A stretch of DNA of 64,000 bases from Globodera rostochiensis (Eukaryota; Nematoda; Chromadorea; Rhabditida; Heteroderidae), in the NCBI GenBank assembly GCA_018350325.1, contig JAEVLN010000011.1, forward strand, positions 1,236,449 through 1,300,448. Reading direction: 5' to 3'. The notes beneath the pieces are model-generated. The model made no database searches. It worked only from the letters and a program-made list of their open reading frames with translations, and was not told the DNA's origin. This document shows positions 804-46,986 of this stretch, piece by piece; positions within the stretch are counted from its first letter, which is position 1, and the number at the start of each line of letters is the position of its first letter. A program made the position numbers and the translations under genes.

Positions 804-3800
804 TCACAGGTCATTGAAAAGCTGACCACCAACACCAAGCTTGGGCAGGACAGAAGCAAGAACATGCCCTGATTAATTAAATGATTTATTAATTTGCAAC
901 CAATGAAATATTGATTGATTTATTAATTGACTGTACCAATCGCCATCAGAACAACGCTACACACAGAAATATTGGTACGAACGCCGAGGTTTGCTGTAAA
1001 CAGGGATTTAGCAAGCAAAAACATCAATTACCCTCAGCGGTTGTAGTCGTCTGTTTGCCCGAGGTCGTCGTCGGTTTGTCCGTGGTCGTTGTCGGGTTGT
1101 CCGTGGTCGTCGTCGTTTTGTCCGTGGTCGTCGTTGGTTTGTCCGTGGTCGTCGTCGGTTTGCCCGTGGTCGTCGTCGGTTTCTGTGTGGTCGTAGGTGG
1201 CACCATGGGAAGAGTGAAGTTTTCATTTGCCAATTTGGCATTCGCTTTTCCAAAAAGGCACTCGCAAGTCACCTTGGCATTTACAGTTTTCCCCACTTCG
1301 GCACTGATGGCAGTACAATCGGTATCGGGAGAACAATTCCACACAGTCATCACGTGCTTATTCCCTGAAGCAATTGCTGGAATACTTAAGTTTGTTGCCC
1401 CCATTTTTGAAAAAAATACATTTTTTTTCAAAGTCAGGTAAAAAGGTGTTTTCTAGGGTTATTCCGGGGCGTAGAATCCGAATCTGACCTCCGTTTCGAC
1501 CCAGTTCGAAGCTTGAACCCGAATTCGAAAAATTCTTCAAAAACTCAAAATTTCCCAAAATTTAATTTTGCCTCAAATCATTCCAGGGTTCGAATAGGTC
1601 GAAATGGAGGTCGGATTCGGATTCTACGCCCCGGAATACCCCTAGAAACATCACTTTATCGACTTTGAAAAAAACATGTATTTTTTTCAAAAATGGGGGG
1701 GCAACAAACTTAAGTATTACCCAATTGCTTACTCTCATATAGACAACCAGGCGTGCTCACGGATACGAATTTTCGTATCCGTATCCGTCCGTCCTCAAAA
1801 GTCCATTTCCGTTATCCGTCCGTATCCGTCCGTCCTCAAAATTTCATATCCGTTATCCGTCCGTATCAGGGCTGGACGCAATCGGATTCTGATTGCGGGC
1901 AATCCGCAATCCGCAATACGCAATCTCAAAAAAAAATCCGCAAGCCGCAATCCGCAACCCCAAAAAGGCCGCAATTTCAGCAATCCGCAATCCGCAATTG
2001 CGTCCAGCCCTGGTCCGAATCCGTGACGTTCCAAAATTCCATATCCGGATATCCGTCCGCGGATGTCCGCGGATATCCGCATTATTTAAAAATCACTAGA
2101 GTTTTCTCCAAAGTTCGAAAAAATGATTTTTCAAAGCGAATTTTATCCGATCGCGTTATTATCTGATTAAAATAAATCGAAATTGATATGTATTGAGCTT
2201 AACAAGAAAATTTTAAAGGAAAAGAATGTCAATTTTTTCCAAAAAAAGTAACATTTTTGTTAGAAAAAAATTTCATAAGTTTTTGAAAATTCTGCTTTAC
2301 TGCTGGGGGGGGGGGTGGGAGGTCGGCGGTGCCGATAGGCGCCGCCGAGAGAAAAAATTGAATATTTAAAGACTTATGCTAAGAAAATCGTCCAACTTTT
2401 AAGTAATTGAGTTCTAAAATGAACTAATTATTTATGTAAATGCTTAAAATTTATTTTATGTCTGATTTTTTTCAAAAAGTTATAGGAATACTCAAAAAAG
2501 AGTTAAGTAAAAAGAAAAAAAAGATGATATCACGAGAGGGTATAGAACCCTAGACTCTATAAGCAGCACCACCCAAAGAGTTTAACCACTAGGACATGTT
2601 CAAATTTACATATCTCCTTGAAAACCAATTTAAGAATTCGTCTTAATAAATTTTCTTTCAGCAGTAAAAAAACAACGGATACGACGGATACCCGCGGATA
2701 TTAAGGCCATATCCGTGATCCGTCCGTATCCGGATATATTCGAAAAACCATATCCGTTATCCGTCCATATCCGGATATATCCGCGGATATCCGTGAGCAC
2801 GCCTGTAGACAACATTTATTTATTATTGAAGAGACCTTTAGCACAGCTGGCCATGTAGCAATATTTGTCCTCATCGTGACTGCACTCCGCTTTGTATGCC
2901 CCGCCATATTCTTCCGAATCGAAGTCTCCTTTTTTGCACGTCAGCACTTAAAAACAAAAACAGATTTAAATTAAATAGTGGGTTATTAGTGCTGCACGAG
3001 ATCCAAAATTTCCCGAGAGACTCTGTACCGACACTTCGAGCCCATAACCCAAAAACTCGAGACTTTTCTCGCGTCAAGACTCCGAGATTCTCGTGCAGCA
3101 TTAATGGTTACCCATTTTCCTTACGGGTTGAAATCGGCATTGGCAGAAGCTCGAATTTTGCATTGGAGAAATCTTCCCCTTCTGCCCCATAAGGGCATTT
3201 GCAGACAAAATTCTTCGTCACCGTCAGCCCCTTACTCACTGCTTCTTCTTCTGCAATCCGACCGCAATCTTTTTTATTAATAACAGGGGCACACATCCAC
3301 ATTATAAACGAAAAAGCATCCGCACCCGCTGAAATTTCAAATCATTTTTTTGCACAATTAAAAGTTTTTTACAAATTTCGCATTTTCTTTTAACCAAAAC
3401 ACTCTTCTACATACTATACTTAGTATCTTCAAGTGTTATCGGTGGCAGGGATGTGCTCTGGTCTGTTCTGATTTTTGATTAATGTCGTTTTGGGCACAAT
3501 ACTGAAAGGGCGAATTATTCTGTTTCCTGCTTCTTAAAAAGGCGACCAGCAGAGCACGTCCCTGATCGGTGGTAGGGATCAGGGATGTAACCTGACGCAA
3601 AAAAAGTTCGGGAATCCGGAAACTGGTTACATCCCTTGTAGGGATGGATGCAATTTTTATGAGCTAAAAACTTCAAAAAATGTATGGCATGAAGCCGACT
3701 CAAATAAATCGATGGCCTGTTTTTTAGCAAATAATTTTCATAAATTCCTGTCACATAGCGACTTATGAAACTTTTTTTGAACAATTAACGTTCAATCGAC

Positions 3801-4467: not shown

Positions 4468-4931
4468 GACGCCGACGGATCGACTCGCCGACGGTTGACT
4501 CGCCGATAATAGTTGATTTTGTTTTATCTATCAAATCAAAATTTTTAAATATAAAAAATCAGACTTCTAACAATCAAAAAATATGGCGGAATTAAAAAAT
4601 TAGTCAAACCAAAAAAAAAGTTGTATTGGAAACTTTGAAAAATGTTCGAATTCGCGTTCGGAGGACGACATTCGCAAAACCCGAGCTCTGATTCGTGCCC
4701 TACGTTTATATGTACCCTAGAAAACATGCATTTAAACTTATAAACACCAAAGTTTTAGCATTTTTTTCAGTCGGGACCTCAATTCTTCATGATTGCCGCA
4801 AATTTTTCCCAGAACTTAAATTGAGATTGTTAGAAGTCTGATTTTTTATATTTAAAAAATTTGATTTGATAGATAAAGCAAAATTAACTATTATCGGCGA
4901 GTCAACCGTCAGCGAGTCGAACCGTCGGCGA
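4468..4931. repeat. Inverted repeat (about 106-bp arms) joined to a satellite array
   Basis: The left arm, 4468-4574, and right arm, 4826-4931, are inverted copies running from iterated GACTCGCCGACGG units to an AT-rich stretch ending TCTAACAATC. The spacer is about 250 bp. The right arm runs directly into the CCCAAACGTGGG tandem array, so arms plus array may be one foldback-like element. Confidence 0.75.
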
Positions 4932-4932
4932 G

Positions 4933-5806
4933 TCCCAAACGTGGGTGGCCCGAACGTACCCGGGGCCCAAACGTGGGTGACCCAAACGTGGGTGGCCCGA
5001 ACGTACCCGGGGCCCAAACGTGGGTGACCCAAACGTGGGGGCCCAAACGTGGGTGGCCCAAACGTGGGTGGCCCAAACGTGGGGGCCCAAACGTGGGTGA
5101 CCCAAACGTGGGGGCCCAAACGTGGGTGACCCAAACGTGGGGGCCCAAACGTGGGTGACCCAAACGTGGGGGCCCAAACGTGGGTGACCCAAACGTGGGG
5201 GCCCAAACTTGGGTGGCCCAAACGTGGGGGCCCAAACGTGGGTGACCCAAACGTGGGGGCCCAAACGTGGGTGACCCAAACGTGGGGGCCCAAACGTGGG
5301 TGACCCAAACGTGGGGGCCCAAACGTGGGTGACCCAAACGTGGGGGCCCAAACGTGGGTGACCCAAACGTGGGGGCCCAAACGTGGGTGACCCAAACGTG
5401 GGTGGCCCAAACGTGGGTGGCCCAAACGTGGGTGGCCCAAACGTGGGGGCCCAAACGTGGGTGACCCAAACATGGGGGCCCAAACGTGGGTGACCCAAAC
5501 GTGGGGGCCCAAACTTGGGTGGCCCAAACGTGGGGGCCCAAACGTGGGTGGCCCAAACGTGGGTGGCCCAAACGTGGGGGCCCAAACGTGGGTGGCCCAA
5601 ACGTGGGTGGGCCAAACGTGGGGGCCCAAACGTGGGTGGCCCAAACGTGGGGGCCCAAACGTGGGTGGCCCAAACGTGGGGGCCCAAACGTGGGTGGCCC
5701 AAACGTGGGTGGCCCAAACGTGGGGGCCCAAACGTGGGGGCCCAAACGTGGGTGGCCCAAACGTGGGGGCCCAAACGTGGGGGCCCAAACGTGGGGGACC
5801 AAACGT
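4933..5806. repeat. Minisatellite of 14/15-bp CCCAAACGTGGG units
   Basis: About 60 units alternate between CCCAAACGTGGGGG (14 bp) and CCCAAACGTGGGTGG or CCCAAACGTGGGTGA (15 bp), with rare variants. The roughly 300-codon ORFs across it in several frames, reading HVWATHVWAP-like repeats, come from the repeat lacking stop codons and are not genes. Confidence 0.95.
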
Positions 5807-6260
5807 TAAACATCGGCTCCCTAAATCACATCCCTAGTTAAAGCCACGGATTGGCATTGTGTTTTTGGCAATTAGCCAAATTAATTTTAGCTAAATCCCA
5901 ACTTTATCCATCCATCTAAAATTTACTTGCTAGAAAAAAAGCATTTTCATATTTGACTGACAAATTCTTTCCCACCGAACATTTCTTTTTTCATTCAAAC
6001 ACCCTTTTTTCACAACGAATTCTCTTTCAAATCGCCCTTTCCCGCTGATAACATCAGAGGACATCTCTCCAATGTATTATGTAGATTAGCAAAATAAATC
6101 ACTGCTTCCCAATGAAGTCCCTCCCCCTCCTCTCCCCCTCCCCATCAAATTCATTTTCCGTTTTCATTCAGTCCTTTTATCACAAATTTTAGTCGACAAA
6201 TTCTGACAATAATAAAAGTTTTTGAAATTATAACAAAAAGAGACCCATTTTTATTATTGC
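5807..6260. other. Intergenic, upstream of the plus-strand cysteine-rich gene
   Basis: AT-rich DNA with a C/T-rich patch near 6120-6145. No ORF or known repeat is seen. Confidence 0.4.
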
Positions 6261-14311: not shown

Positions 14312-16601
14312 CACATGGTCGGGCTCAGTCCTTAAAAAATCGTCGTCTTATGGGAATGAAATATTTTTCGTACCAATTCACAATATAATTCGGGCTTTGG
14401 ACAATCTTTGGGATACCAACGGGGTATGGCGAATAATAATTCACAAAGGGGTAAAGTGAGATGATGTCGAACATGGAAATTTCGACGTTATCCGATGCAG
14501 CCGCATACAAACAAAAAGGCATCGTTCTTCCCCCGGAGTAAGCATCCCTCGGATTGATCGGTCCTTCGTCCGGCACCCCTTCGAAAATTTTCTTCATCTC
14601 CTTATTCCGCTTCAGTTCTTTCTTCACATCACATTCCTAAAATTTGAATTTTACCCAGACATAAAACTTAGGTGCAGGTTAATAAACACTTACCCAGACA
14701 TAAAACATATGTCCAGGTTAGCTGTTTCTTATGCATTCTAGGAAAATGCTTAATAAACACTTACCCAAACTTCCTCCATTTAGAAATTCTTGCACGATGC
14801 TCTCAAACGATCTACTTTATACTCCGTCCTTCCCAAATTCTCCTCAGCACACAGGCCATTCGGCCCGATTGTCCACGGCATAAAACATCTCTCACAGCCG
14901 TGCCATGCGCAGTCCTTGAAAAAATTTTTAACAGAATTTGACGTTGTTTTTACCTGAAACTCAATTATCCTCTTCTGGGCCCCAATCACGCAATCCACTT
15001 TGAAACCCCCAAATTTTATTTCGCCCCCGTTCAAAGCATGTCTGACTTTCACCCCCTCCCTGTGCGCCAACCATTCAAAATATTGTGTCGCAATTCTGCT
15101 CTGCTTATCCGCCTTTTCATAACCCCCCTCCGGAACGATCGGATGTGTCTCTACTTTAAAAACTTTGCCCTGAACACTTTCATCACTACCCCCGCATTGG
15201 TCACGCTGTTTTTGACCACGTCCATGTCTTTCGTTATTCCCAAAAACAATTTCCTGAACTTCAACACCGCCGCCATTAAAATCGCCACATCGCTCTCACA
15301 ATAAATCCTGAGCTGCTCACCTAAATTTAATTGTTTTGTTGCTGAATTTTAAAAGATAATACCCAGTTCAAACTCCGTCTCATAGTTCTCGTTGTACCAT
15401 TTCTCCAATTTTGCACACGTCTCTTCTCTTAAGTTGTCCGGACAATAATCGATGAGCGGTGGGAGGTGGGGGAGCCTGATCCCGAAGTTGGCGTTCTTGT
15501 TGTATTTGTGGGGGAAATACAACTTGGCTGGAATGTCTAACTCCAGAGTCTTAGGCAGCTCGGCCAAAGGATTTTGACTGAGGAGCCAAAAAACCTAAAG
15601 AACACTTTTTTCGACGTGATCTGGTAAATTTTCTGATCTGCCATCAACAATTCCGTCAAGAACCCTTTATTTTTCAGCTCTCTCAAAACAAAATGAGAAT
15701 CAAACCGGACTAAAATTTTTAATGTCCTTAAAAAACTCAGCTTTTTTTTTACCTGCATAATGTGCAAATGCCACGGTCTCAAAACGTTTAAACCCCATGA
15801 TCCAATCCACAAAACAGCTCATAGGATCAATAACCCCCTCTGCCATCGACCACGTCATCCGTTTTTGCCCTTCCCCACAAATTTCACATTCCTTCTCCTC
15901 TCCGACACAAACGCTGCATGTCACTGCCGCAGAAACCAGATTTGGCAGATGCTCACCATTCAACACCGTAGTCTCAAGATCGTATGCCACAATACGGTAC
16001 CGGGGGAGGTTAGGACGAATTTTGGGCTTTTTGATGAAACACTGCCTCTCCGGATGGTATACCATACACCGCTTGCAAAATTTCTCCCCACAAGTGTGAA
16101 TGTCGCGCGTTCTATACAATGCTCCACATTTTTTGCACTTCTTACACAGTTGACACACTTTCTTCTTATGCGCCTCAAAACAAGCCTCATTGCGAAATTG
16201 CTGAAACAAAGTATTTGTAAAATTGACTGACGTTTTTTTAACCTACCAAATCAAAAGCCACGATTCGATACATGTCCGGAAACTCCTTGTCCCAAAAAGC
16301 CTGAACGACTCCCAGATGCCCAAGCCCATAAGATATCGCGTTACCACCTATTCCTAGTTTCCCCATCAAATCCAAGACCATTTCCCTTTGCTTTTTGTCC
16401 GTTTTCATCAGATAACGGAATTTATCCTCCGTAATCCCCTTATTGATCATTTGATAGGTTCGGGCAAACTCCAGGGCACAAAAAAGACCTAATTTTAATG
16501 ATTAGATTTGTTTTTTGTTAGTTTTTGTTACTAAATTTCCCCTTCGGGACAGAAAGACGTCCCAACTCCTTAACTTCGACCAAAGGATTGAAGCGAACCA
16601 T
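14311..16601 (-). pseudogene. Maverick/Polinton DNA polymerase B, 5' half
   Basis: Spliced gene on the minus strand starting MVRFNPLVEVKELGRL at 16601. In order: KFRYLMKTDKKQREMV, a cysteine cluster (CQLCKKCKKCGALY), exonuclease motif I (YDLETT), an exonuclease segment (HFVLRELKNKGFL), motif III (YCESDVAIL), PRDAYSGGRT, and polymerase motif A (FDIISLYPFVNYY). Short introns interrupt it, for example at 14332-14377. The frame continues about seven codons past motif A, then stops at the breakpoint near 14311. The palm (motifs B, C) and thumb are lost. Introns and motifs fit nematode Maverick polymerases. It is the complement of the 11647-12699 copy. Confidence 0.88.
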
Positions 16602-16990
16602 TTTTAAAAAAGGTTGGAAAATAGTAAAGAAAATAGAGAGCAAATTGAGAGTATTTATCTAAAATAAATAAAAATGAAAAAATGCTATAAATATTTGAGA
16701 GGAGGACATGATATTTTTTAAAAATGAAGACAAAAATGCAAAAAGTGTGAGGAGAAGCACCGAATGCCTCCTTAAAAAAGGGAATAGTGGGATAGGCGGG
16801 GCTTAGACTGACGATCCGAAAATGGGATAGGCGTGGCATTGGGTGGCGAGGAGTAAAGAGAGAAGAACACATTGTGTGGTGACAGCTGGCGACTGGCACG
16901 CGGGCATTCATTCGACGGCGACCGGGCAATTTGATTGATGGGTTTTTGAAAGAGGGGTGACACATGGGCAAAATTTTGTTCCATATTTGG
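16530..16990 (-). repeat. Right arm of the Maverick inverted repeat
   Basis: Inverted counterpart of 11240-11716, sharing the first polymerase exon and upstream noncoding DNA with moderate divergence (for example RLPTPKG versus RLSVPKG). The arms are too diverged to be a very recent duplication. Confidence 0.75.
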
Positions 16991-17580
16991 ACCGACCGGT
17001 CACAAAAGTAGGGTTATTTTGATTGACAGGTGAGTAATGACCAGTCGATGGGACGGTCTATTGCACATAATGCCTGGCCCCGATTTAGAAAATAGGATAT
17101 TTTTTGATTGGTATGTATAGAAAAAAGTGACAGTTGGCTCGCACGTAAATGGTTCTTCGTTTCAAAATAACGCCGGTGACAGCCGGGGGCTCGTATGGTT
17201 TTTGATTGATGTGATTTTAGAGTCAGTTGGCTCGCACGTAAATTTCTTCGTTTCAAAATAACGCCGGTGACAGCCGGGGGCTCGTATGGTTTTTGATTGA
17301 TGGGATTTTAGAGTGACTGGCACGGGGTCAATATGGTTGATAGGTTTTTAAAATTGATGGCTGGAAGCATATTTGAATGTGAAATAACATCCGTTAAACG
17401 CCTTGGGCCCAAAAAGTATGGCTTATTGCTTGATGGGTATTAGGAGAGGTGGCTTGCACGAGGACATATTTTATTGAATTAGAATAAATATCTGTGAACG
17501 TTGATCACCCGATACTCTTTGATTGACGGGTTTTAGAGAAGGCCTGCACAAGTCAAAATTTTGTTTCTTTATTAGGCTAT
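16991..17580. repeat. Degenerate tandem repeats outside the Maverick arm
   Basis: Repeats built on TTTGATTGATGGGTTTTAGAG and GGCTCGCACGTAAAT. A unit of about 90 bp with AACGCCGGTGACAGCCGGGG occurs twice, near 17130-17215 and 17220-17310. Tandem repeats near the terminus are common in Mavericks. No gene is seen. Confidence 0.65.
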
Positions 17581-17604
17581 CCGTTTTGCAAAATAATGTG
17601 CCAG

Positions 17605-17790
17605 TGCTATCGAAATGGCTGGGAGCTGAAAAGGGGGCAGACCCCCCTGCCCCCCAGTCAGCGGGAACTTACCCAATGGCTGGGGGCTGAAAAGGGGGCA
17701 GACCCCCGTGCCCCCCCCCCCAGTCAGCGGGAACTTACCCAATGGCTGGGGCTGAAAAGGGGGCAGACCCCTCTGCCCCCCACTCGCCTC
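17605..17790. repeat. Three tandem copies of a 62-65-bp GGGGGCAGACCCC unit
   Basis: Units carry AATGGCTGGG, GCTGAAAAGGGGGCAGACC, a C-run and AGTCAGCGGGAACTTACCC. Copy lengths differ in the C-run. No coding role is likely. Confidence 0.9.
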
Positions 17791-18189
17791 CTCTTTTAAA
17801 TAATATATCGTTGGTACAAAACAGATCCGCATTCACAGACTAAATAGGTTTTGTAAAGACAATTGAAATTTAGCGCTGAACAATATTTCATTCTTTTTGG
17901 CTTGCATGTCTCTACGCGAGCGGACCGCAACCCAAAACCATTCTTTGTATTTTTTAGTACTAATACCCTTTTTTACATTGAGAGCCCATAGTATTGTTCG
18001 TTGGACATTAAAAAAATATTTGCGAAGTAATTCTGTGCAGAAAAATCTCCTCTTTTAAATAATATATCTTTTGTACAAAACAGATCCTCATTCACAGACT
18101 AGATAGGTTTTGTAGACCTCTCGTCGGACCTTCGCTCGTTGGTTTGAGAGGGATCGACCACCTGGCCCTGTTCGCAATGGGTTGTTACG

Positions 18190-18840
18190 GCATTTTAATC
18201 AATATACCATTTCAGATGCATCATTACTAATCGTTATCATCTTCATCATAGTCGCTATTGTCATATTACTGTCATCTTTTGTATCTATATTTTCATGCTG
18301 TTTGTCATCATATGGCATACCATAGTCATACTGTTTGGCATAATAGGTATACTTTGTCATATTTTCATATAATAGTCATAGTTTTCATACCTTTACATGC
18401 CATAGGCATAGGCCTAATGGTTGGTTATTTCATACTCCTCATACACGCATCGTTATATTTAGTCTTATTTGTCATATTTGTCTGATCATATTCATACAAT
18501 AGTCATGTCATATTTCTCACGTTATAGTCATCACCTAGTCATACTTTCTCATACCCGCGTCATTAGTCATACCATAGTCATACTGTTTGGCATAATAGTC
18601 ATACATTGTCATAGTAGTCATACTTTGTCATATTTTCATATAATATTTATATTTTTCATCTCATAGTCATAATTTGTTATAGTATTGTTATCTTTTGTTC
18701 ATCGTTTTGTCATACTTGGTTATAATTAGTCATACTGTTTGTTAAAATCGTGTCAACCATAGTCATCCATAATTATGTCATACCATAGTCATATTTTGTC
18801 ATACCGTTGTATCGTGTTGTCATACCCTAGCTTCTAGCCA
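18190..18840. repeat. Degenerate (AGTCATA)-rich simple repeat
   Basis: About 650 bp dominated by CATAGTCATAC, TTGTCATATT and related words. It is low complexity and no ORF is meaningful. Confidence 0.85.
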
Positions 18841-18963
18841 CCCTTTGACCCTCGTCATGGGTCCTCAATCGTTTCGTCATTCGCAACCCTCGGACCCAAC
18901 CTTTTTTCTTAATAGGCATTCACCTTTTGAGATAGCCTCTTCGGTATGGAATAAATACCACTT

Positions 18964-19850
18964 CTATTCCTTTTCAGTATCCGTATCCTTTACCCAACTG
19001 TTTGGTTTGTTTGTGGCCACTAACCACCGAACAAAATGTTCTTTGACCCCTTTACGAACCCGTGTTCTTAATATCTCTGCAAGTCTGGGGTCCTCTGATA
19101 CTTTTACAAGTTCCTGATTATAGAAAATACCTTTAATGCTTTCGCCATTAAGGTCTTCAATACGATAAGAGGGAGAAGCGGTGTGAAGGACTTTAGTAAT
19201 TTTGAATATTTCTTCTGCAAAATTTGGGAGATATCCCTTTGCAAATACAGCTTTTTCTTTTGTAATTCTGACCGTTTCGCCCAATTTAAATTTCGATTCG
19301 TTTTGTGGTTCTTCCTTATCGCCATATACTTTCTCCCATAGTGCTCTTGCGTTTTTAAACGTTACGTCTGCGGGTTTCATGCCGATTGTTCTGTGTACAC
19401 TATTATTAATATTATTTACAATCTGATCAATAACGTCAACCCATCTAACGGTGTCATTCTTTGTAAAATATTTGTAAAGACGTTCTTTTATAGTACGATT
19501 AGCCCTACCACGCCGGCGTGAAGATGTGGACTATGCATTACATGTTTTATAATGGTTTTACCCTCAAAATATTTTTTCATTTTGTTTGCCAAAAATACAT
19601 AGATCACATTGACAGTCGGTGTGAAAGCCGCTAGGGACTGTTTTTAACCGGGTTTTGGTTTCTGGATAGGTTTGTGAAGTGTGTATGTTCTTTGTTTTTC
19701 AAGAAATGCATTAACATCCTCAAGCTTGATTTTTGGGGTTCTTTTCTTTGCCTCTTCTAAAATCTTTGGAACCCCTGCAAAATTTGCGGGTGATTTTAGA
19801 TCGTAATAAACTTGTGATAGCATTTTATCTACCTTGCTCATTTTTTTCAA
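18964..19850 (-). pseudogene. Maverick integrase lacking the first half of its catalytic core
   Basis: The N-terminal domain (KMLSQVYYDLKSPANF, then RTYTLHKPIQKPKPG) lies at 19850-19644. It runs, after a stop and frame change near 19640, into KMKKYFEGKTIIKHV, the HSPHLHAG region and RANRTIKERLYKYF of the core's second half. Next is the C-terminal chromo/SH3-like domain (FKLGETVRITKEKAVFAKG, then VRWLVATNKPNSW) ending near 18964. The segment with the first two catalytic Asp residues is missing; a copy of that segment is at 14087-14311 in the opposite orientation. An in-frame interruption near 19520 also breaks it. Integrase inserts Maverick DNA into the host chromosome; this copy is dead. Confidence 0.82.
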
Positions 19851-20437: not shown

Positions 20438-21497
20438 TCATATAAAAATATCGGGCGACGGGCGCATTGGATTCAGTCCAACATGGGGCTGTTTTGGTGT
20501 CATCAACGACTGCGACCGATTACTTGTGGTACCTAAAATTATCAGAACATTTTGAAGTAGGCAAAGATAATGAATGACAAATTTGATTACCCAATACCAC
20601 TCATAAGCGCAAATCTCCGTATAAATCCACGGCAGACGATTGCGGCATAACGGATAATGCCGGTCTGCCCCTTCGATGATCTTTGGGGAAATAGGCATAA
20701 ATGAATTATTCTTCTGTTAGCCAACAAGAAAACATACCGCGTATCGAGGCGTAAGCTAAAAAAGACGAAATTGCTTAAAACAAATGGGATCTTGGGACAT
20801 AAATTTGTTTTTTCCATGATTTTTTGCTGATAATATCTGTCGTCCTTGATCACAAGCTTGTAGTCCTCGTCACAACACTCGGCGGATTGCTTCCATCCCT
20901 CCGTCCATTGGCAAAATGTCGGTTTTTCCCCAAAATTTGCTTTGATCTGGTCTTTGCAAGAGGACGATGTCTTCGGGTCCTGCGCCATCACCTTTTTCAT
21001 CTTTGAAAGTGTCGGATCCTAAAATCGAATAGACACATTTCATTATTTTACACTTATGGAGAAAGTTTTAAGCTGATCTTTGTATCAAAAAAGCCACTGA
21101 ATCGCACATTGCATATTTCGATTTGTTTCGTTAAAACACTGAAATTCCTTTTTTATAATATTTAAACAATTTTTGCCAATAATTTGTGGGATAATTCCGT
21201 AGACTTTCTATAAACAAATGCCAATATTTTTGCGTTTACGTAAATTCTCACAGTCTTGCAACATTCACAGCGCGTGCTTTTGTCGCAGCACATCCCCTTC
21301 ATTATTTGGTCAAAATGCAGGGGATCGCAAGCGCAATAGACTGGTTTATCTTTGCACTTTTGGTCCTTGTCCAATGCCCCAACCATATCAGCCTTTTTGG
21401 TGGAATAATTGTTGAAGCAGCATACTGTAATTACCGATTACCATTACCAAACTCTTACCGTGTTTTCTTTCTTCCAACTGAACATCCGGCCCACTGG
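20438..21497 (-). CDS. Secreted cysteine-rich protein paralogue, 5' end missing
   Basis: Paralogue of the gene at 22430-24476, with the same exon order. Exons 21497-21459 (13 codons, PVGRMFSWKKENT) and 21392-21252 (DKPVYCACDPLHFDQIMKG, then MCC and CECC) are in phase. A third starts at 21018 (DPTLSK, then CQWTEGWKQSAECCDEDY), followed by LTPRYA (20756-20739) and a final exon near 20690-20440. No signal-peptide exon is found upstream, where repeats lie. The intron before LTPRYA would be only 26 bp, so the 3' part may be degenerate. Probably a truncated duplicate. Confidence 0.5.
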
Positions 21498-22429: not shown

Positions 22430-24476
22430 CTAAAATTTCTCGTAATTTTCAGTTGGGAGAGATAAAAATTCCATTACCCAATACCACCCAACAATGGCAT
22501 AATCCACTGTCTTTATGCTGCCTTTTTTAAGGATACCATCCGAATAACCAGGGCCCCACAAATCTTTATCCAGCGTGACTCCATCAATGCGCCAATAGTG
22601 AGGCTTTTCTGTATTCCACTAAATATACTCTTTTTAATATAATTCAACAGACAAACGACTACAACAATTACAAAAAGTTACCGCATATCGTGGAATGTGC
22701 TAAAACAGGAAGTGTTAATAAGGGTATTAGAAATAAGCGGCTCCCGACCTGCCAATATTTGTATTCGTAATAAGGGTTCGTAAAGAACCTCCACTCAAAG
22801 AGCCTGCTATTGAAAAGTCTGCTTTGGTAGCTCACAAATCTTCCATCCCCATCTTTGAGGCGGTAGTCTTCATCGCAGCAAGAACTAATCGGCCACCCTT
22901 CCGTCCGTTTGCAGGTTGCAGTTGGGTAATCTTAAAGAACATTGGTACCGGATTTTTTTATTTTAAAATAAAGGTTTTATGCAATCTGATACGCGGGGGT
23001 TATCGAGGTAGCTGATCACAAATATAAAATCACATTCATCATACTTTCATCTAATATAGGATTTAACATCTATAATTTTTGAAAATTAAAAAAAATCTGT
23101 TCTTTTATAAAACTGGTTCTAGGGGTTTAATGGGCCGTAGAAGCCGACCTGATCTCCATTTTGAACGATTTCAAACCACGCACCCGATTTCAAACATTTG
23201 GTCAAGAAATTCAAAATGTTTCAAAAATCAAAAATTAATTTTTGAACAAATTTTCAAAAATCGTAGATTTGAAATAATGTAGTATTACATATGATGAATC
23301 TGATACCATATTCGTGATCAGCGACCTCGATAACCCTCGGGTACCTCTCAGAATTGCATAAAACTTTGATTTAAAAATAAAAAAATTCGGGACCAATGTT
23401 TTTTTTAAGATTACCCGTTTTTCCTTGTGAGCACTCTTTTTCCCCATACTTTTTGGGTACACGGAGCAACTTTAAAAATAACATTAAAAAGTATAATGCC
23501 TCGAATTTACTTGCGGTAGCTTTGAAATGATCGGATCCTTAAAGAACTAAAAATCAACTAATTTGTAAGGCATAAATCAAATTACTTAAGTGTTAAATAC
23601 ACGTAAATAATTAAATTGAGGTGCCAATAATCTTTTACCGTCCAACAGCAACCGCATTTATCGTCTTCGCTGCAGCACATCCCATCCATCATCCGGTGAT
23701 GATTTGAGAATTCGCAAGCGCAATACTCTTTGTTTTTGCATTCCGGCTTCTCATCCAATGCCGAGATCATCTCATTCTGTGAATTAATTGTTAAAGCAGC
23801 ATACTGTAATATGCCAAATTCTTACCGAATTTTTCTGCACCCACGTGTACTTCCTGTTCGACGGCTTACAATTAAAAAGGGAAATTATTTTAAAACTTGT
23901 GTTCAACAAGCAGAGGGGAATTAAATGAATAAACAATAGGAATGAGAATGCATATTCTCATTCACTCACTAATTTCTTGTTTCAATTACTTTAAATACCC
24001 TTGGAGGTAATATACGATATGAGACCAATTAATTCCCTTGATCTAATTTGTATTAAATGCTTACCATTTCGCAACATCTAAACTCGTGGCCTGCGGGGCA
24101 ACACTCGGCATTTAGAGCAAAGTCTGGTAGTGGTGGTAGTGGTTTTTTTCGAACGGCCACAGGAAAGTCTAGTAGTGGCCCAAGATATGTTGCCACGCAT
24201 TCGGCCCAGCCGCACGTGCCATTGCATTTTGCCTGTCCCTTCTCTTTGCATGTTTGGCTCACGGGCATGTCCAAGGGGAACGGCTATAGAAAAAAAGTAA
24301 ACGAATTTAATTATTGATTGAAATTTCAAATTGGAAATTTCCCGGTGAGGATGGGCACAACACCAAACATTGCAACAACACCCACCCACCTGCGAATACT
24401 TCGTCGTCTTCACCTCCGTTGAGCTGACCACTGAGCTGACCACGGCCAATATGAGGAGTTGGTAAGGGCCAAACAT
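22430..24476 (-). CDS. Secreted cysteine-rich protein, nine-exon model, one intron transposon-derived
   Basis: Inferred exons: 24476-24390, 24283-24065, 23864-23826, 23776-23639, 23537-23511, 23469-23415, 22930-22749, 22699-22682 and 22618-22430. The total is 954 nt (317 residues), and every junction is GT/AG with matching phase. The start MFGPYQLLILAVVSSVVSS is a signal peptide; a T-rich AG directly precedes the ATG. Cysteine clusters: C-x-C-x-x-T-C-G-W, ECCPAGHEFRCC, YCACEFSNHH, MCCSEDDKCGCC and TEGWPISSCCDEDYRL, then an aromatic C-terminal region (AIVGWYWVMEF). No known family is recognised. It is likely secreted, conceivably a host-interaction protein, but that is inference. The gap between 23415 and 22930 is an inverted-repeat transposon. 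If it is not spliced out, the frame stops within it. Confidence 0.75.
22924..23416. mobile_element. Inverted-repeat MITE acting as an intron
   Basis: 493 bp with ends GGGTAATCTTAAAG and its inverse; the inverted arms extend roughly 100 bp (TTATCGAGGTCGCTGATCA and inverse). A 3-bp duplication GTT is at 22921-22923 and 23417-23419. It interrupts the coding exon of the 22430-24476 gene. On the coding strand the left terminus gives donor GG/GTAATC and the right terminus gives acceptor TTCTTTAAG/ATTACCC. Relatives are at about 50530-50690 and 46020-46105. Confidence 0.8.
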
Positions 24477-31302: not shown

Positions 31303-32504
31303 TATTTATTAGACTAGGATGTGGTTGGATCCCCGAACACAGCAACGGTCACGCTTTTGGGGCTCTATCTTTGGTGTACAAAAATTTTTTTTGAACATTC
31401 CGAATGATTTTAACTAAAGCCCGGACTTGCAAACCAATCGGGATTTTAGTGTTCGATTCTTAAAAAATCTCTAATTTCGTTGAGCGAGATTTTGATCAAA
31501 AGCGTCGGGATCTCGTATCGGCAGGAATCCCGGTCCCAAAGCCGGTCATTAGTCAATATACCATTTTTGTGCCGGTAAACTTTTGGTTCCCCAATGTTTT
31601 GCTCCACCCCTCCCCCCTCCCCCCCCCCCCCTAATCTCTAATGTAAATCATTTTAATAAACATTTGCAATTATTTATTTGTGTCAAAGGAAAATTTTTTG
31701 TATCTAAATAATTTTTGGTGTACAAAAAGACAAAATTTTTCGAGTGCCAATTTTATGTATTTTTTTAATTTTGTAAGCGCCACGCCCCATTTAACTTTCT
31801 TAAGAAAAGATCAAAGTTTGCCGCGAATGGCACTTTTGAACGGACGGCGCTCGTTGGCCGATGAGCGGCGGGGACGACAGTTTTGTTGTTGATCAGCAGC
31901 AGCAGCAGCAAAAGACACTTTCACTGCTATGAGACAAATGCTGCCGCTTCTCCATAGAATGATGTCATCAACAGACAGGGTGGCTAGCTAATGATCAGGG
32001 TTAATTCTCATGGAATTGTTGCTGGAGGACCATCCCTGATCACCGATCAACCACAAAATGTTGGGACGGACAATTCAGGAGGACCTTATTCCGATCTGGA
32101 ATTCCTGGCTTTAGTGATTTGATCAGCCCGATTGATCCCCTTTTGAATATTTCGTTATGAATTAGCAATTTCTAGGTTAATCACATAGGTGATCGGATCC
32201 CAGTAATCACATAGGTGATCGGATCCCACCCACCCGATCATGATCATTGATCGTTAGCGACAAAACTAACTGTATAGAAAAGTTGGGAGTCTGGAAAATT
32301 CAGGAGAACCAATTCCGATCGGGAATTCTCAAATCCTCGGTTTTTGATTGGTAAAGGAATTCTCTCGATCGATCCCCACTCCCTTAATACCATGAGCTCT
32401 ACTAAAAGAAAATTTAAGCCTTTTATTATTTTTTCGAGAGTCTCGGTCTCGCGTCTCGGTTTTTCAAGTCTCCAACCAAAATTCGTACCTTCCGATCGGG
32501 CGGA

Positions 32505-32770
32505 AGCGTGAACGGCACATTCGTCCAATTGATCCCTGAACGGCACATTCGTCCAATTGATCCCTGAACGGCACATTCGTCCAATTGATCCCTGAACGGC
32601 ACATTCGTCCAATTGATCCCTGAACGGCACATTCGTCCAATTGATCCCTCTCTCGCCAATAAAACAGTTGCAGGAAACATTATCAATCTTTAAACATATA
32701 GCCACATTTTTTGATGCTTTCGTCAGAGGAGTTTACGCAAGCCCAATTCGTGAAACATTTCTTGGCTAAT
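32505..32770 (-). pseudogene. Pseudogene B exon of the cysteine-rich family with 28-bp tandem expansion
   Basis: [18 protein letters not shown] matches the first B exon of the 6283-8644 gene. A deletion shifts the frame, and KIDNVSCNCFIGERGINW continues in another frame. The last segment is repeated five times as a 28-bp unit (GAACGGCACATTCGTCCAAT plus 8 bp). Because 28 is not divisible by 3, the repeat changes frame each time. Non-functional. Confidence 0.8.
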
Positions 32771-34102: not shown

Positions 34103-35722
34103 GTGAGTCAAAAGAAACCAGGCATGATCATGAATACAATTTTTTAAACCCGTGGCCGGATTATCCGCGTCTTTTGTATCCGTCTCATTTTTCGAAATTT
34201 AAATCCTTTATCCGGATATACAGCGGATATATAAGGATAAATGGATTTTTCATATCCGTCCGCATCCGTGCCATTTTTTAAATTATTTATCCGTATCCAG
34301 CCATATCCGGATAATCCGCGGATATCCGAATATGCGGATATGCGTTATTATTCTTATCTGGTTTTACTATTTGAGATTCATCCACTTCTTTAAACATTTC
34401 TAATATGAACGGTTTTATGCAGCCGGTCGCATTCCAAACATTTTTATAAAAGAGAGTTAAGAGGTAGTCATAATTCTGTAAAGAATGCCAGACTAATACT
34501 TAGGGTGTGTCATAAGTTTTGTATTTATTAGACTAGGATGTGGTTGGATCCCCGAACACAGCAACGGTCACGCTTTTGGGGCTCTATCTTTGGTGTACAA
34601 AAATTTTTTTTGAACATTCCGAATGATTTTAACTAAAGCCCGGACTTGCAAACCAATCGGGATTTTAGTGTTCGATTCTTAAAAAATCTCTAATTTCGTT
34701 GAGCGAGATTTTGATCAAAAGCGTCGGGATCTCGTATCGGCAGGAATCCCGGTCCCAAAGCCGGTCATTAGTCAATATACCATTTTTGTGCCGGTAAACT
34801 TTTGGTTCCCCAATGTTTTGCTCCACCCCTCCCCCCTCCCCCCCCCCCCTAATCTCTAATGTAAATCATTTTAATAAACATTTGCAATTATTTATTTGTG
34901 TCAAAGGAAAATTTTTTGTATCTAAATAATTTTTGGTGTACAAAAAGACAAAATTTTTCGAGTGCCAATTTTATGTATTTTTTTAATTTTGTAAGCGCCA
35001 CGCCCCATTTAACTTTCTTAAGAAAAGATCAAAGTTTGCCGCGAATGGCACTTTTGAACGGACGGCGCTCGTTGGCCGATGAGCGGCGGGGACGACAGTT
35101 TTGTTGTTGATCAGCAGCAGCAGCAGCAAAAGACACTTTCACTGCTATGAGACAAATGCTGCCGCTTCTCCATAGAATGATGTCATCAACAGACAGGGTG
35201 GCTAGCTAATGATCAGGGTTAATTCTCATGGAATTGTTGCTGGAGGACCATCCCTGATCACCGATCAACCACAAAATGTTGGGACGGACAATTCAGGAGG
35301 ACCTTATTCCGATCTGGAATTCCTGGCTTTAGTGATTTGATCAGCCCGATTGATCCCCTTTTGAATATTTCGTTATGAATTAGCAATTTCTAGGTTAATC
35401 ACATAGGTGATCGGATCCCAGTAATCACATAGGTGATCGGATCCCACCCACCCGATCATGATCATTGATCGTTAGCGACAAAACTAACTGTATAGAAAAG
35501 TTGGGAGTCTGGAAAATTCAGGAGAACCAATTCCGATCGGGAATTCTCAAATCCTCGGTTTTTGATTGGTAAAGGAATTCTCTCGATCGATCCCCACTCC
35601 CTTAATACCATGAGCTCTACTAAAAGAAAATTTAAGCCTTTTATTATTTTTTCGAGAGTCTCGGTCTCGCGTCTCGGTTTTTCAAGTCTCCAACCAAAAT
35701 TCGTACCTTCCGATCGGGCGGA

Positions 35723-35988
35723 AGCGTGAACGGCACATTCGTCCAATTGATCCCTGAACGGCACATTCGTCCAATTGATCCCTGAACGGCACATTCGTCC
35801 AATTGATCCCTGAACGGCACATTCGTCCAATTGATCCCTGAACGGCACATTCGTCCAATTGATCCCTCTCTCGCCAATAAAACAGTTGCAGGAAACATTA
35901 TCAATCTTTAAACATATAGCCACATTTTTTGATGCTTTCGTCAGAGGAGTTTACGCAAGCCCAATTCGTGAAACATTTCTTGGCTAAT
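35723..35988 (-). pseudogene. Pseudogene B exon of the cysteine-rich family, duplicate
   Basis: Identical in structure to 32505-32770, including five 28-bp units. Confidence 0.8.
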
Positions 35989-44163: not shown

Positions 44164-44412
44164 TGCCCACGCCAGCTCCCTAGCTTTCTCCTTATGAGAT
44201 CATCATTCCCCTCTAATGATCCCATTGTCCTCATTGTGAAGTTCTCCTCTCTTCATGACCGCCTGGGTTGGTGTTTTATTTATGGATTTCATTTTCGATT
44301 TGATTTTATTCGTAACATATTAATTAGTGTTCGGCAATGAGGTTTTCGGTATTCGGTATAATACCGATACCGAAAAAATAGCGAAAGCCCAAATTCGGTA
44401 AAATATTGAATT

Positions 44413-44796
44413 ACATTTTGCCACCTTTACATTTTGCCACCTTTACATTTTGCAACCTTTACATTTTGCCACCTTTACATTTTGCCACCTTTACATTTTG
44501 CCACCTTTACATTTTGCAACCTTTACATTTTGCCACCTTTACATTTTGCCACCTTTACATTTTGCCACCTTTACATTTTGCAACCTTTACATTTTGCCAC
44601 CTTTACATTTTGCCACCTTTACATTTTGCCACCTTTACATTTTGCCACCTTTACATTTTGCAACCTTTACATTTTGCCACCTTTACATTTTGCAACCTTT
44701 ACATTTTGCCACCTTTACATTTTGCCACCTTTACATTTTGCCACCTTTACATTTTGCCACCTTTACATTTTGCCACCTTTACATTTTGCCACCTTT
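44413..44796. repeat. 24 copies of a 16-bp tandem repeat ACATTTTGCCACCTTT
   Basis: Exactly 384 bp. Some units have GCAACC in place of GCCACC. All three plus-strand frames are open (HFATFTFCHLYILPPL), so the ORFs are artefacts. It sits between two TAGTGTTCGGC hAT-like ends (44330 and 44799). Confidence 0.97.
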
Positions 44797-46986
44797 TTAG
44801 TGTTCGGCCAGAAGGTTCAGTCGGTACTTTTCGGTAAAGTACCGAAAAATACAGATACCGAAAAATACCGAAAAAAATTGTCGGTACTTTTTCGGTTTTC
44901 GAGTAATTTTTAACAAAACTCGTTTATTTCGGAATTTTTGACTTTATCAATATTTGTTTTTGGCGATTGCGGTTCACGAAAATCAGCATTTCGGCCTTTT
45001 CCTGTACCCATTTTATTTTAAAGCACAAATTAATATTTATTGCAAAATCGAGGATCCAAAAACGTTGAGAATTCTTTTCCTCAATATGTAAGACGCCCGA
45101 TGTTAGCTTTTCAAACTCCAAATTTATCTGATTTGCTAAATCACATTCGAACCGGGAAGGATGTTTTGTCAGAACGTTGATGAAATACTGATAGCATGAA
45201 ACTTTTGCTGATTTTACAATTGGAGGTTGCTTAAAATGAGCATTCCCTCATAATCATATAACAATGATAAATCTTATAACTCACTTAGTTCGATGTGGAT
45301 GGCGTTGGCTGTTCGGTTCAGCAGTAAATTCAACTATTTCCTTTTTCGAATTTCTCTCCGTAGAAGTATGCGAGCAGTAAACAAATTAAAAATGAAATTA
45401 AAATTGTCGAATAAGTTAATAATCAGGTGCGAAAAATGTTACAACCATAATTTTATTGCGCAAATATATGCCAGAGTGGCCATAAATCCCTATTTATCAG
45501 GGATTTCCTGATTTTTGGGAGGTTCCCTGATTTTTCAAAATTTTGAAATTTTTCAGTGAAAATGGCCATTTCTTAAATATATCGTTAAAATCTTCAAAAA
45601 AAAAATCCTCGGCGTCGCCGGGTCCCTCCTATTTCTAAAAAGCTTCAAAAATACTCACAATTCTATTAAAATTTTGGTTGCAAATCTCGCTGCCCTACGA
45701 AATACCGAAGCCACGAAACACCGACTAAGCCAAAAAGCGACGAAATACCGAAAAAAAAAATTTTAAAAAGTCGACAAAAAGATTTACTTAGGGGTATACA
45801 AGTGCGTAGAATCAGAATCCGACCTCCATTTCGAACCCCGGACCTGGATTTGAACATTTTGATAGAAAATTCGATTTCTATTGATATCTTATTTCACTCA
45901 GAAATGATTCGTAAACACTTTTGAATCTCTACAAAAAAGCCGCAAGCGCAAATATGTGCGGTTCGAGTCCGGAAAAACTCAGAAGAATGCGACACTTAGA
46001 AACACCTTTTTAGGGACTTTGAAAAATTATATGTTTTCAAAAAATCTTAGATGTTGAATCATAAATTAGATGATGTCATATGATGAATCTGATGTCATAA
46101 TTAGAGACCGGAAACTTGGACCCAAAACCCAAAACCCAAAAATTTTTTGGGCATTTTTTGGGTTTTGGTTTTTTTTGGGTTTTGCGACCATCTGACCCAA
46201 AACCCAAAAATTTTTTGGCCATTTTTTGGGTTTTGGGTTTTTTTGGGTTGACAAAACCCAAAATTTTGTACAAAACCCAAAAAATTTTAGAAAACATAAA
46301 AAAATGCCCAAATTTCCGATTTTCTTAAAATTTTTTAATAAAAGTTTTATTCAACACATTTTTCTGACCAGTAATCATAAATCCATGAATAATATTAATA
46401 TCAGGGTAGCCACCTGTCAAACCCAAAACCAGGAATACCGGCTGAAAAATCAGAAAAAAATCAGGAATATTTTTAGGTGTGTGAATATAATGAATTTAAT
46501 GCCAAAACTTTTTTATTTTAAAGAAAATTGTGTAAAATTTCGATAATTTGCCGATTTTTTGAATTTTCAGAAATCCAATTTCTTTTTGCAAATTCTGCTT
46601 TACTGGGGGGTGGCGGTCGGCGGTGCCGATAGGCGCCGCCGAGAAAATTTTGAATTTTTGACTCAATTTGTTAAGGGATTTGCAACCAAAATTTTAAAAT
46701 TACGGCACTTTTTTTGAATTTTTAGGAATGGGAGAGGTCAGCCGGCGCATGTGTTGATTTTTTCAAAAAAACTTTTTTTTTGCGCCATTTTAATTAAAAA
46801 ATATTCAAAATTTATTTTGAACATGTTAATAATGGAAGAAGAGAGTATGTGAGGAGAAAAAATGATACATAAGTGCTCGCACTGCGGTGGGTTCGAACCC
46901 AACACATAAACTAAGAGTTACCGAAAAGACAAACCACTAAGCCATCAATATTTATAAAGATTCTTGTAAAAAAGATTGAAAAAACA
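44797..46986. other. Gene-free stretch rich in MITE fragments
   Basis: 44800-44905: CGGTACTTTTCGGTAAAGTACCG repeats. 45800-45860: GTAGAATCAGAATCCGACC dispersed repeat. 46105-46290: ACCCAAAACCCAAAAATTTT palindromic repeat, also at 48770-48930. 46616-46642: GATA-loop hairpin with a tRNA-like module at about 46880-46940. No gene is supported. Confidence 0.5.

What the first reader, a model, noticed from the sequence alone, without database searches (positions are those of the whole stretch)
22924..23416. A transposon that appears to have become an in-frame intron (introner-like MITE)
The 493-bp inverted-repeat element lies inside a coding exon of the secreted cysteine-rich gene at 22430-24476 (-). 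The 3-bp duplication GTT on both sides shows it inserted into the exon. Its termini are GGGTAATCTT and AAGATTACCC. On the coding strand they give a GT donor (GG/GTAATC) and an acceptor TTCTTTAAG/ATTACCC. That acceptor has the same last nine bases as an ordinary acceptor of this gene (before 23537). Splicing there leaves 12 extra nucleotides and keeps the frame: the upstream exon ends in phase 1 and the downstream exon resumes in phase 1. The product then matches the paralogue at 20.4-21.5 kb (TEGW, then CCDEDY). Reading through instead hits a stop within about 15 codons. A DNA transposon with splice sites at both termini is a mechanism for making new introns. It is known as introners in some eukaryotes; I cannot recall one described in this setting.
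Basis: partly seen in the sequence, partly recalled or inferred. Interest (0 to 1): 0.88.

Follow-up and report, generated by a model that had tools for sequence, protein, structure and literature searches.

The report
Jumping DNA that may splice out
A short jumping DNA element in a potato cyst nematode sits inside the coding part of a gene, and its two ends look like the signals that cells use to cut introns out of RNA; a better-preserved relative sits the same way in a conserved gene, but no RNA evidence was available to show that either is really cut out.

Summary
The element is real: 491 bp (GGTAATC...GATTACC), long inverted repeats, inside the exon of a secreted cysteine-rich gene whose paralogues carry that exon uninterrupted. 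A GT donor and a CTTTAAG acceptor lie in its ends, and the exon halves are in compatible phase. The claimed 3-bp GTT duplication is wrong: of 35 two-ended family members, 18 have exact 8- or 9-bp duplications (0.11 expected from shuffled pairing); this copy has none, and its arms have diverged (85% identical), so it is probably old. The family is Mutator-like; the genome is a Globodera, most likely G. rostochiensis.

A cleaner second case supports the idea: a young copy with a perfect 8-bp duplication inside the only DP transcription factor gene found. Splicing at the same two sites keeps frame (7 element + 8 duplicated bases = 5 codons), and relatives' proteins fit the empty form slightly better. 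The public G. rostochiensis DP model uses this acceptor but starts inside the element, not at the upstream exon.

Against a dedicated introner: 2 of 35 two-ended copies sit inside a recognisable coding exon; a single-ended copy in a VPS13 exon belongs to a broken duplicate. No transcripts were seen. Likely a known kind of event: a transposon behaving as an intron.

The parts
22925..23415 (.). MULE-like MITE, core GGTAATC...GATTACC, 491 bp, long inverted-repeat arms (85% identical over the terminal 120 bases, gap columns left out)
22925..23044 (+). left inverted-repeat arm as compared here (first 120 bases; supplies the acceptor on the minus strand)
23296..23415 (-). right inverted-repeat arm as compared here (last 120 bases; supplies the donor on the minus strand)
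23413..23414 (-). candidate 5' splice site, aaacgg|GTAATCTTA
   Evidence: inferred, no RNA data
22931..22932 (-). candidate 3' splice site, CCAATGTTCTTTAAG|attacc
   Evidence: inferred, no RNA data; the same acceptor in the DP copy is used by a public gene model
22931..23414 (-). candidate intron, 484 nt
   Evidence: sequence
23415..23469 (-). upstream exon half, 55 nt, ends in phase 1
23470..23510 (-). predicted ordinary 41-nt intron of the same gene; paralogue L046 has a stop-containing interruption at the same place
22800..22930 (-). downstream exon half (PTATCKRTEGW...CCDEDY), homologous to the uninterrupted exon of the paralogues; its 3' limit is approximate
20827..21018 (-). uninterrupted homologous exon of the neighbouring paralogue

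Best explanation
The element is a diverged copy of a Mutator-like (8-9 bp target duplication, long inverted repeats) non-autonomous DNA transposon family. In its GGTAATCTTAAAG subfamily one end reads G|GTAATC and the other CTTTAAG|ATTACC, in either orientation, so an insertion into an exon brings a possible 5' and 3' splice site with it (shown by sequence). With an 8-bp duplication, 7 element bases plus 8 duplicated bases add exactly five codons, so the frame survives (shown for the DP gene). The most likely handling is that the spliceosome removes the element as a new intron, in the DP gene and probably in the window gene (inferred, no RNA seen). It is an occasional exon insertion tolerated because of these ends rather than a family specialised in making introns (inferred from the low exonic fraction sampled).
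For: Family and duplications. DP copy (L025, element 2501-3497): duplication GGACAGTC on both sides; open frame from ATG 2298 up to the element; the frame after the acceptor runs into an E2F/DP domain (8.1e-05, just below the curated cut-off, and 1.9e-12 for the next exon; the first exon itself matched no family); the only DP match in the genome. It is young: terminal 120 bases of the arms identical (98% over 190 bases), and 99.7% identical over 666 bases to two other copies. H. trifolii Dp-1 (P0002) has one GQS where the spliced form would have two; the empty form scores better than the spliced form against P0002 (427 vs 420) and also against P0123, P0124 and P0003 (304 vs 302, 274 vs 265, 302 vs 300). 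P0123 and P0124 look like genomic frames that pass the site without an intron and run on into the next intron. The public model P0001 uses the same acceptor. Window copy: paralogues uninterrupted, phases compatible, acceptor equal in nine bases to an ordinary one of the gene, both terminal motifs intact although the arms differ by 15%.
Against: No transcript. P0001 does not use the upstream DP exon: its first 20 residues come from inside the element. H. trifolii differs from the empty form by a further 4-residue gap near the site, so the region varies in length for other reasons too (the four-sequence alignment placed the gap differently). Upstream exons of the window gene match 2 proteins, both G. 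pallida, none from G. rostochiensis (only relatives of 0.55-1.75 times the query length could be found), and neither model has this exon directly after DPIISKLP. As RNA, donor and acceptor pair with each other in a long hairpin, which could hide them. Only 2 of 35 two-ended copies are inside a recognisable coding exon. A VPS13 exon with a left end of the family is a broken duplicate. The window copy has no target duplication.
Confidence: 0.5

Rival explanations
1. The element simply broke the window gene, which is now a decaying or rarely expressed paralogue; the splice-like ends are a by-product of the transposon's terminal sequence.
For: No G. rostochiensis protein was found for the gene, and the two G. 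pallida models lack this exon at that place; the element is diverged and lacks a target duplication; a comparable insertion sits at the end of a broken VPS13 copy.
Against: The other exons that I compared (exon 2 and the downstream half) are open and keep their cysteines; both splice motifs are intact in an otherwise diverged copy.
Confidence: 0.3
2. The element acts as an alternative first exon or promoter (or trans-splicing acceptor) rather than as an intron; in DP this gives the public protein with a different N-terminus.
For: P0001 begins with 20 residues encoded inside the element and then uses the terminal acceptor; the bases before its start codons read ATTAG|ATGATG, a possible trans-splice acceptor.
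Against: Gene finders can force a start there; the upstream exon is open with a start codon and resembles the N-terminus of H. trifolii Dp-1.
Confidence: 0.15
3. The element landed in an intron already present at this position in this gene, not in an exon.
For: Copies do sit in or at existing introns: L043 in a GC-AG intron of an endoplasmin-like gene, recognised by eye, and L023 at the exon-intron border of a Raf-like gene.
Against: The paralogues compared have no intron here, and the exon halves reach the element's ends with no other obvious splice motif at the junction.
Confidence: 0.05

Closest known systems
Introners, the type of Aureococcus (Gozashti et al. 2022, PMC9860276; seen: outline with abstract, part 1 of section 4, passages)
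   Same: DNA transposon with target duplication that carries both splice sites and adds a few codons (there 4 + 8 = 12 bp; here 7 + 8 = 15 bp in DP)
   Different: There introners are found as sets of similar introns, 5 to more than 2,000 per family and genome; here 2 exonic cases among 35 copies and no RNA. The main text reports introners in two animal groups; the word nematode does not occur in it
Transposons spliced from mRNA: C. elegans Tc1 (Rushforth and Anderson 1996) and maize Ds 'de novo synthesis of an intron' (Giroux et al. 1994); only the titles seen, in reference lists
   Same: By their titles, an element is removed by splicing
   Different: How those elements supply splice sites was not read; here both sites lie in the terminal inverted repeats and, with an 8-bp duplication, the frame is kept by arithmetic
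Mutator-like (MULE) MITEs (recalled)
   Same: 8-9 bp target duplications and long inverted repeats; MULE transposase domains exist in the genome
   Different: No transposase was found inside an element of this family; a 5.4-kb relative holds tandem repeats instead

Membership tests
Introner | Inserted into a coding exon | tested here: met
   Window copy and L025
Introner | Splice sites at or next to the element's ends, frame kept | tested here: met
   By sequence only:
Introner | Many similar introns at non-homologous positions, similarity reaching the splice borders | tested here: not met
   2 of 35 two-ended copies inside a recognisable coding exon; only part of the about 190 elements suggested, and only selected flank frames, were examined
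Introner | Removed from transcripts | not testable with these tools
   No RNA reads available; the public DP model uses the acceptor but not the upstream exon
Introner | Intron absent from orthologues in relatives | tested here: met
   DP only: P0123 and P0124, which I take for genomic frames, pass the region without an intron; P0002 is a protein and shows only that the extra residues are missing. For the window gene only paralogues could be compared
Mutator-like (MULE) MITE | Target duplication of about 8-11 bp (range recalled) | tested here: met
   18 of 35 exact at 8 or 9 bp; not met by the window copy itself
Mutator-like (MULE) MITE | Long terminal inverted repeats | tested here: met
Mutator-like (MULE) MITE | Autonomous partner with the same ends and a MULE transposase | tested here: inconclusive
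   30 PF10551 matches in the genome, none checked for such ends; the 5.4-kb element L118 shows no transposase that I recognise in the frames listed (no family search was run on it)

The most novel reading that the evidence does not exclude
A recently mobile Mutator-like MITE family in a cyst nematode works as an introner: both splice sites are built into its inverted repeats, in both orientations, and an 8-bp duplication plus 7 element bases keeps the reading frame in any phase (barring a stop at the junction). It has created at least two new introns, one of them recently in the single-copy DP gene, which would be a nematode source of new introns.
Probability: 0.3. Interest if true: 0.75.

Novelty: new member of a known kind. 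Interest (0 to 1): 0.5.

Why it matters
The nematode intron survey of which I saw passages (PMC9169325) discusses why the source sequences of new introns are not found, and does not mention Globodera. A young transposon copy in a conserved single-copy gene, with its target duplication intact and relatives without the insertion, is a case where TE-driven intron birth could be tested with public RNA reads. It also gives a plain arithmetic reason (7 + 8 = 15) why a transposon family might be tolerated in exons.

Tried and rejected
Rejected: the 3-bp duplication. Rejected as a spliced case: the VPS13 exon at L017, which has no right end and no match to the other two copies in about 7.6 kb beyond the element's left end; those copies run on past the site. 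Not exon insertions: L043 (existing GC-AG intron), L023 (exon-intron border), L061 (next to an astacin exon). L052 and L053 remain unclear. Led nowhere: autonomous element; transcript-derived Globodera DP protein (13 proteins, one with a source name, 'hypothetical protein'; three sequences read, none Globodera-like); a comparison of subfamilies whose right end lacks AG (too few exonic copies).

Rows dropped before the count of 35: L026 (left end altered), L031, L038 and L029 (no matching right end), single-ended loci, L086/L087 and L094/L095 (left end not found), L096, L078 (no end found), and the 5.4-kb element L071/L072/L118, which does have an exact 9-bp duplication. Weak Pfam matches below the curated cut-offs on other flanks (E 0.01-0.03) were taken as chance; one flank is a hAT transposase (L077).

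Literature: 9 searches. 'introner' + 'nematode': 16 papers, of which I looked into one (PMC9169325, passages); 'introner' + 'cyst nematode': 0 papers; Globodera + WAP domain + effector: 0 papers; listings only. No counterpart in print was seen in these searches.

Full report
What it is. The window lies in a 92.6-Mb, 80-contig genome. The DP gene found here is 98% identical over 78% of the query to Globodera rostochiensis Dp-1; four query residues absent from that record come from my own choice of an intron border (compare). A 92-Mb G. rostochiensis assembly, in 173 scaffolds, is described in PMC8359618 (passages). I take the genome to be G. rostochiensis or a very close relative. The element at 22924-23416 belongs to a repeat family: 118 listed matches, several per element, from the 40 scored of 482 candidates. 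A broader end motif, with up to one mismatch, occurs 187 + 195 times against 2 + 5 for the reversed control, about 190 elements if all were paired.

Target duplication. Alignment of full copies moves the ends one base inwards (GGTAATC...GATTACC). In 35 elements with both ends, 18 show exact 8- or 9-bp duplications, against a mean of 0.11 for shuffled pairing; the window copy does not. The 35 include a few duplicated loci. A 5.4-kb relative outside the count has a 9-bp duplication. This fits Mutator-like elements (recalled); MULE transposase domains match 30 times in the genome, but none was checked for these ends.

Position in the gene. The neighbouring paralogue and four more family members carry the exon uninterrupted; two further matches begin at or after the site. 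The window gene has a predicted 41-nt intron at 23470-23510, where L046 also has a stop-containing interruption, and then the element. On the minus strand the upstream half ends in phase 1 at 23415, GT is at 23414-23413, AG at 22932-22931, and the downstream half resumes at 22930 in the compatible phase. I compare phases only and write out no joined product, because this is a secreted protein of a crop parasite and might be an effector.

The second case. L025 (C15:71349-72345) lies inside the first predicted exon of a transcription factor DP gene, with duplication GGACAGTC. The upstream frame starts at ATG 2298, the frame after the acceptor at 3492 continues into the E2F/DP domain, and no other DP copy was found. 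Removing the candidate intron adds five codons relative to the empty site. H. trifolii Dp-1 fits the empty form better than the spliced form (427 vs 420) but still lacks 4 residues next to the site, so the region is not of fixed length; the three other relatives compared also favour the empty form, by 2 to 9 points. P0123 and P0124 look like genomic frames without an intron in this stretch. The terminal 120 bases of the arms are identical, 98% over 190, and two other copies are 99.7% identical over 666 bases, so the insertion is young. The public model P0001 uses the terminal acceptor but starts at 3367 inside the element: support for the acceptor, and evidence against use of the element-wide intron.

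How common. Flanks of the two-ended elements and of further single ends were examined by open frames and by Pfam for 40 selected sequences (3 + 2 + 5 + 30), two of which are frames elsewhere in the DP and VPS13 genes. Inside a recognisable coding exon: 2 of 35 (window, L025). At an exon-intron border: L023, next to a Raf-like Ras-binding domain (E = 1.9e-5, just below the curated cut-off; the only such match in the genome). In an existing GC-AG intron: L043, endoplasmin-like by eye. Next to an astacin exon: L061. A single-ended copy in a VPS13 exon (E = 1.1e-10, below the curated cut-off) is a broken duplicate: three loci match, and the two others run on past the site. The rest gave no recognisable coding exon, but most of the about 190 elements and many frames were not tested, so 2 of 35 is a lower bound.

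Mechanism. The termini resemble ordinary splice sites of the DP gene as I place them from P0001: donor G|GTAATC beside GTAAAT, GTTTAT, GTGTGT, GTTAGT and GCAAAA; acceptor CTTTAAG beside TTTAG and TTCAG. G. rostochiensis has a published 3.46% of GC/AG introns, 'the highest reported for any nematode' (PMC4901422, passages), so its donor use is known to be permissive. The inverted repeat of the window element pairs donor with acceptor in a hairpin (-188.3 kcal/mol, z -14.4); this may hide the sites or bring them together, and the data do not decide.

Relation to known systems. Introners of the Aureococcus type carry both splice sites and add 12 bp (PMC9860276). Transposons removed by splicing are known from C. 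elegans Tc1 and maize Ds (titles in reference lists). The present case works like these if spliced; membership in a genome-wide introner class failed the 'many introns' test as far as sampled.

Verdict. Observation partly confirmed, interpretation partly supported; a new member of a known kind, to be decided by RNA reads that exist but could not be read here.

Noticed in passing
P0001 (UniProt A0A914HTI4) and L025:3367-3426: The first 20 residues of the public G. rostochiensis Dp-1 protein (MMSYDKSDVIFVISDLDNPR) are encoded inside the transposon; the annotated N-terminus is probably wrong or transposon-derived.
   Followed up: yes
L023 (C4:1428929-1429785): A young copy (arms 99% identical, 9-bp duplication) sits at the 3' border of a Raf-like Ras-binding-domain exon, so its end may replace the original 5' splice site.
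   Followed up: partly
L017/L055, L056, L057: Three VPS13-like loci; the copy on C15 ends at a left end of this transposon family and does not continue in about 7.6 kb, the other two run on past the site.
   Followed up: partly
L118 (C5:2351281-2356678): A 5.4-kb element with the same ends and a 9-bp duplication is filled with a tandem repeat open in three frames instead of a recognisable transposase.
   Followed up: partly
window 15700-19530, minus strand: Open frames that look by eye like a DNA polymerase B fragment and an integrase, suggesting a Maverick/Polinton-like element (recalled resemblance, not tested).
   Followed up: no
window 32244-32732 and 35462-35950: Two identical 162-aa open frames about 3.2 kb apart, pointing to a recent duplication.
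   Followed up: no
window 4787-5837 and 44382-44913: Long tandem repeats open in several frames (FGPPRLGH..., FATFTFCHLYIL...).
   Followed up: no
L088-L091 and L063/L064: Pairs of loci on C34 and C5 are mirror copies of each other including their flanks, so some copies counted apart come from segmental duplication.
   Followed up: no
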